Of a DNA stretch of 62,785 nt, positions 12,756 through 18,188 are shown piece after piece. The stretch lies in the NCBI GenBank assembly GCA_001029295.1, contig LDXJ01000043.1, positions 112 through 62,896 on the forward strand. Reading direction: 5' to 3'. A program made the position numbers and the translations under genes. Within the stretch, counting starts at the first letter, position 1; each line of letters begins with the position of its first letter. The notes under the pieces are model-generated. The model worked only from the letters and a program-made list of their open reading frames with translations. It was not told where the DNA came from and ran no database searches. The DNA comes from Peptococcaceae bacterium CEB3. GTDB taxonomy: Bacteria > Bacillota > Desulfitobacteriia > Desulfitobacteriales > Desulfitobacteriaceae.

Positions 12756-14423
12756 CTATGGGGTCAGGCGGCCGCGACTGGCCTGAACCATGAGGCGCAT
12801 GCTTACCCAGTAATTCCGTTCCGCGCGGGTGCAGGCGTTTTGCGCCCTCAGGCGGCAGTTCTCCTCGGAGAACCACCAATCGCAGCTCAGCTTGCCCAGA
12901 TCTAGGTTTCTCTTGATCTCAGCGCCGATCTTGGGGCTCCAACCTCTGCTTCGGGTATAGGTCAGGACTTGTTCAGACAGGTTTTTATAAACCGGGTGAA
13001 TGAAGTCCTGACTCTCTTGATCATATTCCAAATCGAGAATGGGAACGACCCCGGCCAGATCGCGGGAAATGTCAGCCAGCAAGTCCTGCTCCTCGTTGGA
13101 TGAACCAATATACAGGTAGTAGAGCCTGGCCATCTGCTTTTTACCGGAAGAGCGCAGAATCCTGCCTAATCTCTGGATGCGCTGACGATCGCTGGCTGTG
13201 GAGGAAGCAATAATCCCGATGTCGGTTGCCGGTACATTCAAGCCTTCATCCAAAGCCCGGCAGCTGACGAGAATGCGAATTTGGGCATCTTGATAGTTAC
13301 GCAGAATATCCCGGCGGCTGCGCTCATCCATCTCGGAATGATAGCGCCCCACCTGCCCGGGAAAGACCAGCCGCAAAGTTTCATAAAGTGTGTCCGCCAA
13401 CTCAATCCTTTCGCTAAAAATCAATACCTTGGATGTGAGCGGAAGCCGGGTGAGAAGATCCTTGACACAGCTTAGCCTGGATTCCGCCCGATAGACCAAA
13501 TCTTTACGCTGGAGAGCTTGGTTGAGAAATAAACGCGCCGCGTTAGCCAGTTGATGATCGTCGGATTGTTGAGCCAATTGCTCGAGACGGGCGAAAAAGT
13601 GGGGTTTGGTTAAGCCCTTGAGAAAAGGGCAGACGCCCATCAGGAATTTTAGGGCACGAACGAGTCGATCGCTTAACTCCAGATATTTCCCTTCCTCATA
13701 GGGAGTGAAGGCCAATTTGAGGTTAAAGATAGCAAATGAACTAATGATTTTGGCATTCAAAGCGTCAGTAAAACCGTATTTATAGATGACAGGTCCCAGG
13801 GCGGGAACCAGTTTTTCTTGAAAGGCGGCTGTCTCCGGGGTCGCGGACAAGCCTAGGGTGTAGTAGGGGGAAGCCGGATGCCGGGAAGGTATTTGGGACA
13901 TATAATCGAAGATGCGCGAATTTTCCGGGCTGCCGTAGTGATGGCACTCATCAGCGATCAACAAGAGAGAACTGCCTCGCTGATAGTCGGCCAGGAAGTG
14001 TTTGGCCAAAGTATCGCGCGCCGAGTTTACGACATAGATCATATACTTGCGGGTGGGAGGGTCTTTGTGGATACCGGAGTAAACGCCGATCTCAGCCTTA
14101 GGCACAGCCAGATCTTCCTCCAGGCTGTGAGCCCATTGCTTGGCCAAAAAGACCTTGGGTACGACAATCTTGATTTTTAGAGCAGGCGCATTTTTTGCGG
14201 CTAATGTCTGTTCTAACCTGGCTATGGCTCCCAGGGCCAGGATAGTTTTACCGGCTCCGGTCACCACGTTGATGATCCCTTTACCTTGTTGCTGAAACCA
14301 GAGATCCAGGCATTCTTCTTGCCAAAGAAATAACCGTTTTGTCAACCGGGCATAGAAGTCGGAACCGGATTTGGTTGTTCCCGCGGCATTCTGCCTTTGT
14401 TCAAGGGGCATTCTTTTTATCAC
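12756..14423 (-). CDS. superfamily II DEAD/DEAH-type helicase
   Basis: About 555 residues from a GTG at 14423, or 551 from the ATG at 14411, which has GGGTGAT upstream. Motif I is V-T-G-A-G-K-T. Motif II is D-E-C-H. Motif VI is Q-R-L-G-R-I-L-R-S, in the order of XPB/RAD25-like and restriction-type helicases. The N-terminal F-L-W-Q-E-E-C-L resembles the Q-tip region of such helicases. The C-terminal 120 residues contain W-W-F-S-E-E-N-C and no recognised nuclease. It is transcribed away from the three-gene ATPase set starting at 14610 and ends 15 bases from the GH31 stop. Partnership with the ATPases is inferred from divergence, not proven. Confidence 0.88.
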   Translation of the reverse strand: MIKRMPLEQRQNAAGTTKSGSDFYARLTKRLFLWQEECLDLWFQQQGKGIINVVTGAGKTILALGAIARLEQTLAAKNAPALKIKIVVPKVFLAKQWAHSLEEDLAVPKAEIGVYSGIHKDPPTRKYMIYVVNSARDTLAKHFLADYQRGSSLLLIADECHHYGSPENSRIFDYMSQIPSRHPASPYYTLGLSATPETAAFQEKLVPALGPVIYKYGFTDALNAKIISSFAIFNLKLAFTPYEEGKYLELSDRLVRALKFLMGVCPFLKGLTKPHFFARLEQLAQQSDDHQLANAARLFLNQALQRKDLVYRAESRLSCVKDLLTRLPLTSKVLIFSERIELADTLYETLRLVFPGQVGRYHSEMDERSRRDILRNYQDAQIRILVSCRALDEGLNVPATDIGIIASSTASDRQRIQRLGRILRSSGKKQMARLYYLYIGSSNEEQDLLADISRDLAGVVPILDLEYDQESQDFIHPVYKNLSEQVLTYTRSRGWSPKIGAEIKRNLDLGKLSCDWWFSEENCRLRAQNACTRAERNYWVSMRLMVQASRGRLTP

Positions 14424-14609
14424 CCGTTTCCCACTTTTAAATGGATGCCGCTGCCAGTCCGCGATCTGGGACTGCGACAGCGAGAAAGGAAGGATATCTC
14501 TGTTTTGTGTCGAATTCTAGTTTAAGAAGATCATAATTTATTATACCCCGGTTCGTTCAAGCCAGGAAGGGGACGAAGGGAACAAAAAGTGGGACAAAGG
14601 AGCATGAGA
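14424..14609. promoter_or_regulatory. shared divergent control region of helicase and ATPase genes
   Basis: An AT-rich core near 14530-14560 contains TATAAT on the minus strand (GGGGTATAATAAATT) for the helicase and TTTATTATA on the plus strand. A small hairpin, CAGTCC/GGACTG, lies between the core and the helicase start. The -35 boxes are weak, so exact promoters are not assigned. Confidence 0.4.
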
Positions 14610-15422
14610 ATGGCTGATTATGAGGACTTACTCAAAAAGATGGCGGTGGCGGAAAAAGAGCTTAAGGATAAGATCAGTGGACTGCAAAAGCTGTATAAGA
14701 GTTTAAGTAAAAGTATGGAAAAAGGCGATCTCAAGAGTTGGAACAGGGATCTGGGGGCTATGCGTGCCAGCCTGAAGGAACAAGAAATCATGATGGAAGC
14801 CATGCAGGCTCAGGTTGACGACTTTGGCATTCGCGCTTATGTGGAAAATGGTGAGTTTGCCGAGCAGATGCTTTTATGCTGCGATCGTTTGGAAGTAGAT
14901 GTCAAAGGTGAATTCCCTATGTATGAGATGTTTCCTTTTCGGGTCCGGGTGGATACCGAGAATCTGGACTTATACCTGGACCGCAAACGAGTCCAATGTT
15001 TGCGCCCTCTGGCGTTTGTGCAGGATGTCAAAGCCAGCCGGGATAAACTTCTCAAGGCCGCTTTTGATCCCAAGGGCTTTGTTAAGGAACTGGCGGCCGC
15101 TTATGACTTAATGCTACTGAAACAGAATCAGGGTAAATTGACCACCGTAGCAGTAGGAGACATATATTTGAAGAATCTCTACACTCTTTTAACCCCCATG
15201 AGGCGTTTTCGCAGGGATTATGACCAACAGAGCTTCGCTTTTGATCTGGCCCGTCTGTATGGTTCAGACCTGCGTTCTACGGAGGATGGGCGACAGTTCC
15301 AGTTTGGCCCCAGCCGCAACATCAACAAGGCGATTCGCATCTTGGATCAAGACGGCCGGGAACAGTATCTGGCTACCATTCGCTTTTTCGAACCAGTGGC
15401 GTCTGAACAAGAATTAGCCTGA
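14610..15422 (+). CDS. coiled-coil protein of unknown family, first of ATPase operon
   Basis: 270 residues from the ATG at 14610, which lies 7 bases after AAAGGAG; a GTG at 14589 is possible. Residues 1-75 are strongly heptad-like and charged (K-K-M-A-V-A-E-K-E-L-K-D-K, then E-K-G-D-L). The remainder is a mixed globular part with D-R-K-R-V-Q-C-L-R-P-L-A-F-V and R-R-F-R-R-D-Y-D. No membrane segment, signal or catalytic motif is recognised. It is followed after 51 bases by two BREX-like ATPase genes, suggesting a structural or DNA-loading partner. I do not recognise the family. Confidence 0.72.
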   Translation: MADYEDLLKKMAVAEKELKDKISGLQKLYKSLSKSMEKGDLKSWNRDLGAMRASLKEQEIMMEAMQAQVDDFGIRAYVENGEFAEQMLLCCDRLEVDVKGEFPMYEMFPFRVRVDTENLDLYLDRKRVQCLRPLAFVQDVKASRDKLLKAAFDPKGFVKELAAAYDLMLLKQNQGKLTTVAVGDIYLKNLYTLLTPMRRFRRDYDQQSFAFDLARLYGSDLRSTEDGRQFQFGPSRNINKAIRILDQDGREQYLATIRFFEPVASEQELA

Positions 15423-15473
15423 TCCAGCTTCCGACATCCGACTTCTGACTTCTAATTTTAGGGGGTAACAGTA

Positions 15474-16691
15474 TTGGAGAGCACCCAATCCGCCTTGTCA
15501 CGCCTTAAGAAGGGACAGGCTCCCGGTAATCGGCAAATCTTAGAGGAAATATCGGTGGGCAGCGATTTCATGCTCGATTTTTGGCGGGAAAAATATCTCG
15601 CGAGTTATCTGGTTGCGGGTGGCAGCAAGATAAAGTTTTTGACAGGCCGGACCGGCAGCGGAAAAACTCACTTTTTAGAGATGCTGGCTTTGACCGCGGA
15701 AAACCTGGGTTATATCCCGGTTAACCTTTCGGCGCTGGAAATAGGCATTCATGATTTTAAGGAAATCTATACGGCGATCTTGCGCCAGGTCAATTTGCCG
15801 GAACGACTGCGGCTGTGCAGCCACGAGGTCATCCGGCAGCTTGGCTATGAGCCTGCCAAGGTCCCGGCGGATCTTAGTTTGGCCGACTATTTGTCCGGCC
15901 AGGGCCTGTTGGATCCGCTGACTAAGCGGGAGATAAGACAGCAGCTGGAGAAAGTATTTCTTACCAACCCCCTGATGGACAACAATTTCGCTTTGGCCTG
16001 TGCTCACTTAACCGGTGGTATTTTAGGACACCCACTTCTGGAAGAAGCCAGCCGCAAACTCTTGCTTCTGTGGCTGGAGGGGAGCCGGGAAGCCAAACTG
16101 CCCTCCATCCGCCGTCTGGGCCTTTCGCCCAGCAGGATTACCAAGTACAATGCCAGACATATGCTGCGTTCCTTGGTCGAAGTCTGTTGCCTGGCCGGGT
16201 ACAAGGGGTTGATTATATCCATTGATAATATGGAGGTCCTGTTGGGTGGGGAGCCGGAAAGCATGCGTTATACCCGGGGGAAACGGGAAGATGCTTACGA
16301 GAGTATCCGCGAGCTGATCGATGAAATCGATACCCTAAAACATACCATGTTCGTTTTCTCTTTCGATCGAGCCTTGATGGATGATGACAGCAAAGGGTTA
16401 AAGTCCTATCAGGCCCTGTGGATGCGGATTCAGAATGAGATTGAAAGCACCCGTTTCAACCGGTTCGCCGACATTGTGGATCTTGATCGCCTGATTGATG
16501 AGGTCTATACGCCTGAGAGGATTGTGGAGATGTCTACCCGCCTGGCCCAGGTGATCAACCGCCTTGATGAAGAGGCCAGCCCCATCGACATGAGCACAGC
16601 GGAGGAACTCTATGCCAGGTCGAAGTTTGGCAAAGTATCTTTGCCCAGGCGGGTCGTCCTGAGTACTTTGCGGGAAGGAGCAGAGCAATAA
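15474..16691 (+). CDS. P-loop ATPase resembling BREX BrxC/BrxD (first copy)
   Basis: 405 residues from a TTG after AGGGGGTAACAGTA. Walker A is G-R-T-G-S-G-K-T near residue 62. The likely Walker B strand is L-I-I-S-I-D-N-M-E, with Asn where a catalytic Glu is usual. The layout resembles the BrxC/BrxD group (Pfam DUF2791), AAA-like ATPases of BREX and Ter-linked systems. The following gene encodes a similar-sized ATPase and begins within its stop codon (TAATG), so the two are probably made in equal amounts. The altered Walker B suggests a structural or regulatory role beside an active partner (inference). Confidence 0.75.
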   Translation: MESTQSALSRLKKGQAPGNRQILEEISVGSDFMLDFWREKYLASYLVAGGSKIKFLTGRTGSGKTHFLEMLALTAENLGYIPVNLSALEIGIHDFKEIYTAILRQVNLPERLRLCSHEVIRQLGYEPAKVPADLSLADYLSGQGLLDPLTKREIRQQLEKVFLTNPLMDNNFALACAHLTGGILGHPLLEEASRKLLLLWLEGSREAKLPSIRRLGLSPSRITKYNARHMLRSLVEVCCLAGYKGLIISIDNMEVLLGGEPESMRYTRGKREDAYESIRELIDEIDTLKHTMFVFSFDRALMDDDSKGLKSYQALWMRIQNEIESTRFNRFADIVDLDRLIDEVYTPERIVEMSTRLAQVINRLDEEASPIDMSTAEELYARSKFGKVSLPRRVVLSTLREGAEQ

Positions 16692-17908
16692 TGGATTTCG
16701 AGGCTCAGCGGGTTATTGAGGCTCTGCGCTCGGGAGTTTCTTCCCGGGCGGTGGGACACTATTTCTCCTCTGCCCGTCCCGAACTCATGGAACAGATCTC
16801 TCACCAGTTAGATCGAGTGAAAGATGGCGGTGAAGCGAGTGGTATGGTCGTCTCCGGGAAATACGGAGAAGGTAAGACCCACCTTCTGAATACCGTGTTT
16901 AATATGGCCCATAGCAACAATATGGCTGTCAGCCTGCTTTCCCTGAGTAAAGAGACCCCCTTTGACAAACTCTATCTGGTTTATCAGAAACTGATCAGCA
17001 ACACGTATCTGCCTCAGCGCCTGCAGCCGGGATTTCAGCATGTGTTGCAGGAAATGACCCCGAACAACCCTACGGCCGTCGATCTGCTTTCCTTCACCGG
17101 CAAGCATTTGGAAACTGATAAGCTGTTTTTCGTTTTACGTTCTTACCTAAATGTGGATGATCCGGATGACAAATATTTACTGATGGCCGATCTGGAGGGT
17201 GACTTCATCAACAATACTTACTTGCGTCAAATCTACAAGAGGATCTTTTCCCAACCGGTCCGTTTCACTGTTCCCTTCAGCAAAACCCGTCATAGTATGG
17301 ACTACTTCACGATGCTGAGTCATCTGTTTAAATTGCTGGGTTTCAACGGGTGGGTCATACTGTTCGACGAAACCGAGTTGCTGGGCCGTCTCGGTAAAAA
17401 GTCACGCCTCAACGCTTACAAAAATATGGCCTCTTTCTTGTTTCCCGACAAATATTCGAGGTTGGAGTCCACTTTTACGATGTTTGCCCTGGGAGCCTCT
17501 TACCGGGAAGATGTCATAGAATCTAAGCATGACTTTGACAACCTCACGACGGTCTATGTGGATCGGGTTCAACGTGAGCCCATTGAGAAGGTGCTGAACC
17601 TCATCGTGAGCGCACCCCAGTTGCAGCCGCTTAACCAGGATGAAATCCTGAAGGTTCTGGAACAGGTCCAGATTTTTCATGGTCGGGCTTACGACTGGCA
17701 GCCTCATCTGGATGTGCGTGAGGTCTTAAAAGCTTCGGCCAACCGGGGCTACTTGCTGAGAACCCGCATTCGCGCCGCTGTAGAAGTGCTGGACCAGCTT
17801 TACCAGTACGGTGAGGCGGGCGATATCCGGATCAATGACCTGGGAGAGCCACACTATCAGGAAGAGGAATTGCCTTCTCTGGATGGCTGCATTGTCGATG
17901 AAAATTGA
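16691..17908 (+). CDS. P-loop ATPase resembling BREX BrxD (second copy)
   Basis: 405 residues. The N-terminus (R-V-I-E-A-L-R-S-G-V, then Q-L-D-R-V) and G-K-Y-G-E-G-K-T-H-L-L Walker A near residue 57 follow the BrxD plan. It continues with L-S-K-E-T-P-F-D-K-L-Y-L-V-Y and a normal Walker B, W-V-I-L-F-D-E-T-E. BrxD proteins accompany BREX type 2 phage-defence loci. Here PglZ, PglX and PglW are absent, so this is not a complete BREX set. It overlaps the previous ATPase gene by one base and ends the operon; a bidirectional terminator lies 240 bases on. Confidence 0.8.
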   Translation: MDFEAQRVIEALRSGVSSRAVGHYFSSARPELMEQISHQLDRVKDGGEASGMVVSGKYGEGKTHLLNTVFNMAHSNNMAVSLLSLSKETPFDKLYLVYQKLISNTYLPQRLQPGFQHVLQEMTPNNPTAVDLLSFTGKHLETDKLFFVLRSYLNVDDPDDKYLLMADLEGDFINNTYLRQIYKRIFSQPVRFTVPFSKTRHSMDYFTMLSHLFKLLGFNGWVILFDETELLGRLGKKSRLNAYKNMASFLFPDKYSRLESTFTMFALGASYREDVIESKHDFDNLTTVYVDRVQREPIEKVLNLIVSAPQLQPLNQDEILKVLEQVQIFHGRAYDWQPHLDVREVLKASANRGYLLRTRIRAAVEVLDQLYQYGEAGDIRINDLGEPHYQEEELPSLDGCIVDEN

Positions 17909-18146: not shown

Positions 18147-18188
18147 GCCCAGGCACCTTCACGCCAATTGGAGGTGCCTGGGCCATTT
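18147..18188. terminator. strong hairpin, probable terminator of the ATPase operon
   Basis: A 12-bp perfect stem (18147-18158 with 18172-18183; GCCCAGGCACCT) is flanked by AAAA on the left and ATTTT on the right, so it could end transcription from either side. The rest of 17909-18296 shows only a weak hairpin (CTCACT/AGTGAG near 18029) and no gene. Confidence 0.6.

What the first reader, a model, noticed from the sequence alone, without database searches (positions are those of the whole stretch)
12756..17908. Four-gene helicase / coiled-coil / twin BREX-like ATPase module without any BREX effector
Two 405-residue P-loop ATPases resembling BrxC/BrxD are coupled (TAATG) and preceded by an unrecognised coiled-coil protein. 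A superfamily II helicase diverges from the same control region. BREX loci pair BrxD with a helicase and PglZ, a methylase and others; none is here. Ter-linked ATPase-helicase sets have also been described. This could be a minimal DNA-surveillance or anti-phage system, or a chromosome-maintenance complex. The functional link of the helicase is an inference from layout.
Basis: partly seen in the sequence, partly recalled or inferred. Interest (0 to 1): 0.78.

Follow-up and report, generated by a model that had tools for sequence, protein, structure and literature searches.

The report
Portable split-ATPase helicase cassette, probably defence
A small portable gene set found in scattered bacteria encodes two mutually dependent molecular motors, a new adaptor protein and a DNA-unwinding enzyme; its more distant relatives sit inside bacterial immune systems (CRISPR and BREX), so it is probably an uncatalogued piece of antiviral machinery.

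Summary
All four genes are real and always found together in the window's own clade: helicase diverging from coiled-coil (CC), ATPase D1, ATPase D2, at mostly unrelated genomic sites. They form a portable accessory cassette (CC in 9 of 74 genomes of the order, 19 of 398 in the phylum). More distantly, only CC-D1-D2 stays together (29 loci). The neighbouring helicase changes: XPB/PbeA-like (window), BrxHI/SngC-like, SNF2, or a type I Cas3. Relatives lie inside CRISPR type I-A, I-B and I-D operons and beside BREX genes, which supports immunity. The clearest new result concerns the ATPases: BrxD keeps both the catalytic Walker B glutamate (25/25) and a presumed arginine finger (25/25). Here the two are divided: D2 keeps the glutamate (29/29) but lacks the finger motif (0/29); D1 keeps the finger (29/29) but rarely the glutamate (3/29). 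So D1 and D2 probably form an obligate hetero-oligomer, likely loading or controlling a helicase on DNA. It is not BREX, Shango or Pbe: the genome has no PglZ, TerB or DndC above cut-off. CC matches no known family. Function is untested; defence is inferred from context.

The parts
12756..14423 (-). HEL: 555-aa SF2 DECH-box helicase, XPB/PbeA-like core, without the N-terminal HKD/PLD nuclease of PbeA
   Evidence: Pfam ResIII and Helicase_C; best PADLOC PbeA 9.6e-58, matching only the helicase part of the models; TIGR04095 150 bits against a 600 cut-off; best solved relatives XPBII/RAD25
14424..14609 (.). Divergent control region between HEL and CC; conserved TGTCGAA (0A-box-like) at 14508-14514
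   Evidence: Alignment of 10 relatives, 28% mean identity overall; TGTCGAA exact in 7 and one mismatch in 3
14610..15422 (+). CC: 270-aa orphan protein, N-terminal coiled-coil hairpin, C-terminal region with winged-helix-like helix/strand order
   Evidence: No family match; AF2 model mean pLDDT 64.6, hairpin well predicted, rest poor; found in all 29 core loci
15474..16691 (+). D1: BrxD-like ORC/Cdc6-type ATPase that keeps the presumed arginine finger (R318) but lacks the Walker B glutamate (N252)
   Evidence: PF10923 3.4e-30; finger Arg 29/29, Walker B Glu 3/29, Walker A Lys 23/29 among homologues
16691..17908 (+). D2: BrxD-like ATPase with intact Walker A and DExE Walker B, lacking the finger motif; start overlaps D1 stop (TAATG)
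   Evidence: PF10923 1.5e-26; Walker A Lys, Walker B Asp and Glu all 29/29, finger motif 0/29 among homologues

Best explanation
This is a portable, probably defence-related DNA-surveillance cassette. D1 and D2 arose by an old duplication of a BrxD-like ORC/Cdc6-type AAA+ ATPase and now probably form an obligate hetero-oligomer: D2 binds and hydrolyses ATP, and D1 supplies the arginine finger to D2's site. CC is probably the scaffold that carries the ATPases and touches DNA. The ATPase assembly recognises or clamps some feature of incoming or actively processed DNA, then loads or controls the SF2 helicase, which strips or unwinds the DNA and blocks replication or hands it to host nucleases. 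Shown by computation: gene set, co-inheritance, divided catalytic features, exchange of neighbouring helicases, mobility, immune context of distant relatives. Inferred: hetero-oligomer, arginine-finger role, CC as adaptor, helicase loading, outcome against invaders.
For: Core never split: CC-D1-D2 in order in 29 loci; pairwise identities correlate 0.89-0.94 among CC, D1, D2 and 0.92-0.94 with HEL in its clade. D1 and D2 form two main clades (22 rows each, 100/100 and 100/99) apart from the BrxD clade, with matching sub-clades. Divided catalytic features. Helicase neighbours of different kinds: PbeA/XPB-like, BrxHI/SngC-like, SNF2, Cas3. HEL lies elsewhere in genome G066, which carries the core without an adjacent helicase. 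Immune context: type I-D with Cas10d, Cas5d, Cas3d, Cas1, Cas4 and a 30-copy array (L049), Cas3b and Cas1 (L050), I-A (L051), Cas6 (L052), BREX type 3 genes (L054), BREX type 2 genes (L070), BrxL (L057). Mobility: flanks of 15 close loci nearly all differ. BrxD with BrxHI is already proposed as a helicase-loading dyad (PMC12839542).
Against: No experiment. In the window's clade most neighbours are housekeeping genes. No nuclease or other obvious effector in the cassette. Several core loci (L054, L056, L058-L060, L062, L063) have no recognised helicase directly adjacent. Three D1 (L047, L070, L105) still have the glutamate. The D2 structure model failed (pLDDT 43.5) and the CC model is weak, so the finger assignment rests on alignment position and motif. 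No relative in the phage set or viral contigs.
Confidence: 0.6

Rival explanations
1. A Shango-type system in which the TerB protein SngA has been replaced by CC and the ATPase SngB duplicated, acting by the Shango mechanism.
For: ATPases match SngB (1.9e-16, 1.4e-13); L070 and L105 carry BrxHI/SngC-like helicases directly after D2.
Against: No TerB in the genome; CC shows no TerB match; window helicase is PbeA/XPB-like with no SngC among the 25 best hits; two ATPases with divided features instead of one.
Confidence: 0.15
2. A chromosome-maintenance or DNA-repair complex (XPB-like helicase with ORC/Cdc6-like loader) not aimed at invaders.
For: Helicase's best solved relatives are XPBII/RAD25; window-clade neighbours are mostly housekeeping; a conserved 0A-box-like site suggests growth-phase control.
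Against: Rare and patchy, mobile, one remnant copy (L107), relatives within CRISPR and BREX loci.
Confidence: 0.15
3. A phosphorothioate-dependent Pbe-like restriction remnant.
For: Helicase best matches PbeA and the dnd_restrict_1 family.
Against: No DndC over cut-off in the genome; PbeB, PbeC and PbeD counterparts not seen beside it; the HKD nuclease that PMC10853773 describes in PbeA is absent; the NCBIfam match is far below its cut-off.
Confidence: 0.04

Closest known systems
BrxD-BrxHI dyad of type 2 BREX
   Same: ORC/Cdc6-type ATPase of the same Pfam family next to an SF2 helicase; in L070 the CC-D1-D2-helicase block directly follows PglX-PglZ-BrxD-BrxHI
   Different: Two diverged ATPases with divided catalytic features, the CC protein, a different helicase in the window, no PglX/PglZ/PglW
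Shango (SngABC)
   Same: Stand-alone small module of BrxD-like ATPase plus SF2 helicase plus a third protein; antiphage activity shown (PMC10250203)
   Different: CC instead of TerB, two ATPases instead of one, non-SngC helicase, divergent layout
PbeABCD / CxC ABC-ATPase systems
   Same: Helicase core related to PbeA
   Different: No HKD nuclease, no CxC ABC ATPase, no DndE, no phosphorothioation genes
Eukaryotic ORC and other hetero-oligomeric AAA+ complexes (own knowledge)
   Same: Division of labour between ATP-hydrolysing and finger-donating subunits
   Different: Only an analogy; no origin or replication role shown

Membership tests
BREX | PglZ present | tested here: not met
   No PglZ in the genome
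BREX | BrxC/BrxD-type ORC/Cdc6 ATPase | tested here: met
   PF10923 above cut-off for both, but NCBIfam BrxD 75.5 and 51.2 bits against a 350 cut-off
BREX | PglX/BrxX methyltransferase and BrxC in the locus | tested here: not met
   None among the genes flanking the cassette (by reading); only two PF10923 genes in the genome
Shango | TerB-domain protein SngA | tested here: not met
   No TerB in the genome; CC and 17 homologues without TerB match
Shango | SngB-like ATPase | tested here: met
   PADLOC SngB 1.9e-16 and 1.4e-13; two copies rather than one
Shango | SngC-like helicase | tested here: not met
   Window helicase best hits are PbeA models; SngC not among the best 25; relatives L070 and L105 do have one
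PbeABCD | Phosphorothioation genes (DndC) | tested here: not met
   Only a 22.6-bit partial hit against a 290.4 cut-off
PbeABCD | PbeA-type helicase | tested here: inconclusive
   Helicase part matches (9.6e-58) but the N-terminal part of the model does not, and TIGR04095 is below cut-off
CRISPR-Cas accessory module | Located in a cas operon | tested here: not met
   Not for the window; Cas1 lies on another contig. Met for relatives L049-L052
Antiphage defence system | Protects cells from phage or plasmid | not testable with these tools

The most novel reading that the evidence does not exclude
CC-D1-D2 is a previously undescribed plug-in AAA+ module with one ATPase site shared between two subunits, adopted separately by stand-alone cassettes, BREX and at least three CRISPR type I subtypes to load or control whichever SF2 helicase, including Cas3, the host system uses.
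Probability: 0.35. Interest if true: 0.82.

Novelty: new variant of a known kind. Interest (0 to 1): 0.66.

Why it matters
The biochemical role of BrxD- and SngB-type ATPases is, to my knowledge, unresolved. A relative in which the glutamate and the finger sit on different polypeptides makes their oligomeric mechanism directly testable with two point mutants. The presence of the same three genes inside CRISPR type I-A, I-B and I-D operons and beside BREX suggests that separate immune systems share a helicase-control module. The libraries searched here (PADLOC 2.0.0, Pfam, NCBIfam) have no model at all for CC.

Tried and rejected
CC as a TerB, known nuclease or known BREX part: no family match, and conserved positions are mostly hydrophobic, Gly, Pro or aromatic. 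CC fold search: best E 0.45, no usable match, model too weak. D2 structure: pLDDT 43.5, not used further. Solved-structure search for CC and D2: nothing significant. Viral contigs, phages and plasmids: no close relative, except a weak D2 hit that led to the Aulosira plasmid locus L070. Rfam on the whole window: nothing. CC versus the coiled-coil proteins of the three-ATPase loci L101-L103: weak collinear similarity, probability 37% and then 10%, homology left open. A search centred outside the phylum failed because the tool needs a genome handle. Base composition: no clear break at the cassette edges.

Full report
Observation. D1 and D2 are coupled by TAATG, CC precedes D1 by 51 bases, and the helicase diverges. 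Homologues start CC at the ATG at 14610. Both ATPases are above the Pfam cut-off for BrxC_BrxD and are the only members in the genome. CC is an orphan. The helicase has an intact DECH core, best matched by PbeA models and, among solved structures, by XPBII and RAD25, and it lacks the nuclease part of PbeA.

Close relatives. A scan with D2 gave 14 loci, and a search of the order gave CC in 9 of 74 genomes, the window's own included. Wherever a close relative's contig covers the place, HEL, CC, D1 and D2 occur in the same order and orientation. Two more distant members of the order (L062, L063) have CC-D1-D2 without an adjacent helicase; one of these genomes (G066) carries a HEL homologue on another contig, in two pieces. 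Flanking genes of 15 close loci are almost all different, apart from one closely related pair (L022/L023) and a few generic paralogues, so the cassette is portable. L107 holds the remains of a decayed copy.

Distant relatives. In the phylum sample CC is found in 17 of 398 genomes, and in 19 with a wider profile. CC-D1-D2 occurs together, in that order and on one strand, in all 29 loci examined. In this sample the intact loci with exactly two tandem ATPase genes carry CC; loci with three such genes (L101-L103) carry another protein of about 280-300 aa and a helicase, BrxHI/SngC-like where scanned.

Partners. Neighbours differ by clade. L049: type I-D CRISPR (Cas10d, Cas5d, Cas3d upstream; Cas1, Cas4 and a 30-copy array downstream). 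L050: Cas3 of type I-B with Cas1. L051: type I-A genes Cas8a, Cas5a, Cas7 and a Cas3. L052: Cas6. L049 and L051 also carry a DUF4282 protein beside the core. L053 and L104: a protein of about 190 aa and a helicase; in L053 it is a ZorD/DpdE-like SNF2 enzyme, and L104 has the same layout. L054: BrxF, BrxC and PglXI, the genes of type 3 BREX, within 7 kb. L057: BrxL follows D2. L070, a cyanobacterial plasmid: PglX, PglZ, BrxD and BrxHI, then CC, D1, D2 and a second BrxHI/SngC-like helicase. L056 is followed by an Hsp70-like protein and others. Loci L058-L060 have no recognised helicase or defence gene adjacent.

Divided catalytic features. In one alignment of 25 BrxD-type proteins, 29 D1 and 29 D2, the Walker A lysine is present in 25, 23 and 29; the Walker B aspartate in 25, 28 and 29; the Walker B glutamate in 25, 3 and 29; and the arginine just before strand 5, in a motif like SYxALxxR, in 25, 29 and 5 (the motif itself in 24, 29 and 0). 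The five D2 arginines are in the four CRISPR-linked rows and one SNF2-clade row, without the motif. [quoted passage not shown] I equate the two by position, since no reliable model was obtained. Complementary loss of this kind is what one expects if a homo-oligomer became an obligate hetero-oligomer. In the tree D1 and D2 form separate clades apart from the BrxD clade, with matching sub-clades; the long-branched rows L070 and L105 are placed less surely.

Mechanism. BrxD with BrxHI has been proposed to work like a helicase loader (PMC12839542). The present set fits that idea better than any other I considered: a two-subunit ATPase, an adaptor, and helicases of several SF2 kinds. Whether the helicase acts on invading DNA, and what harms the invader, is not shown; the cassette has no recognisable nuclease.

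Comparison. It is not BREX (no PglZ), not Shango (no TerB; other helicase) and not Pbe (no DndC over cut-off). It works most like a duplicated BrxD-helicase dyad. I found no paper that describes it in the library available, which holds only open-licence papers, so earlier description elsewhere cannot be excluded.

Limits. Sampling outside the phylum was not possible except through the plasmid, phage and viral sets and the one genome-contig scan. Defence context comes from more distant clades; in the window's clade neighbours are mostly housekeeping. Co-inheritance figures come from related sequences and are not independent. Some neighbour assignments (small proteins, flanks of close loci) were read from the sequence rather than tested.

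Noticed in passing
window 14508-14514: TGTCGAA, identical to the Spo0A box as I recall it, is exact in 7 of 10 HEL-CC intergenic regions and has one mismatch in the other 3, although the region is otherwise poorly conserved; the seven-base word itself is no rarer or commoner than chance in the window. Possible growth-phase or sporulation control.
   Followed up: partly
L049 5890-6249, L051 9780-10148: A DUF4282 small protein lies beside the core in two CRISPR-linked loci of different subtype.
   Followed up: partly
L101 7303-14036, L102 4785-11277, L103 7495-13978: A related set with three BrxD-like ATPases, another protein of about 280-300 aa and a helicase; the third ATPase lacks the finger motif, the first two keep it. 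In L102/L103 it lies among flagellar genes.
   Followed up: partly
L056 3901-10509: The core is followed by a 437-aa orphan, an Hsp70-like protein, a 545-aa orphan and a metallo-beta-lactamase-fold protein, possibly one operon.
   Followed up: no
L054, L058, L059 upstream of CC: A protein of about 350-420 aa (HTH domain found in L058) precedes CC in three related loci, perhaps a regulator.
   Followed up: no
window 18147-18183: Strong terminator-like hairpin (15 pairs) between the cassette and the panD-like gene.
   Followed up: no
L107 885-2488: Decayed copy: fragments of D2, D1 and HEL with CC and the facing halves of D1 and HEL missing.
   Followed up: no
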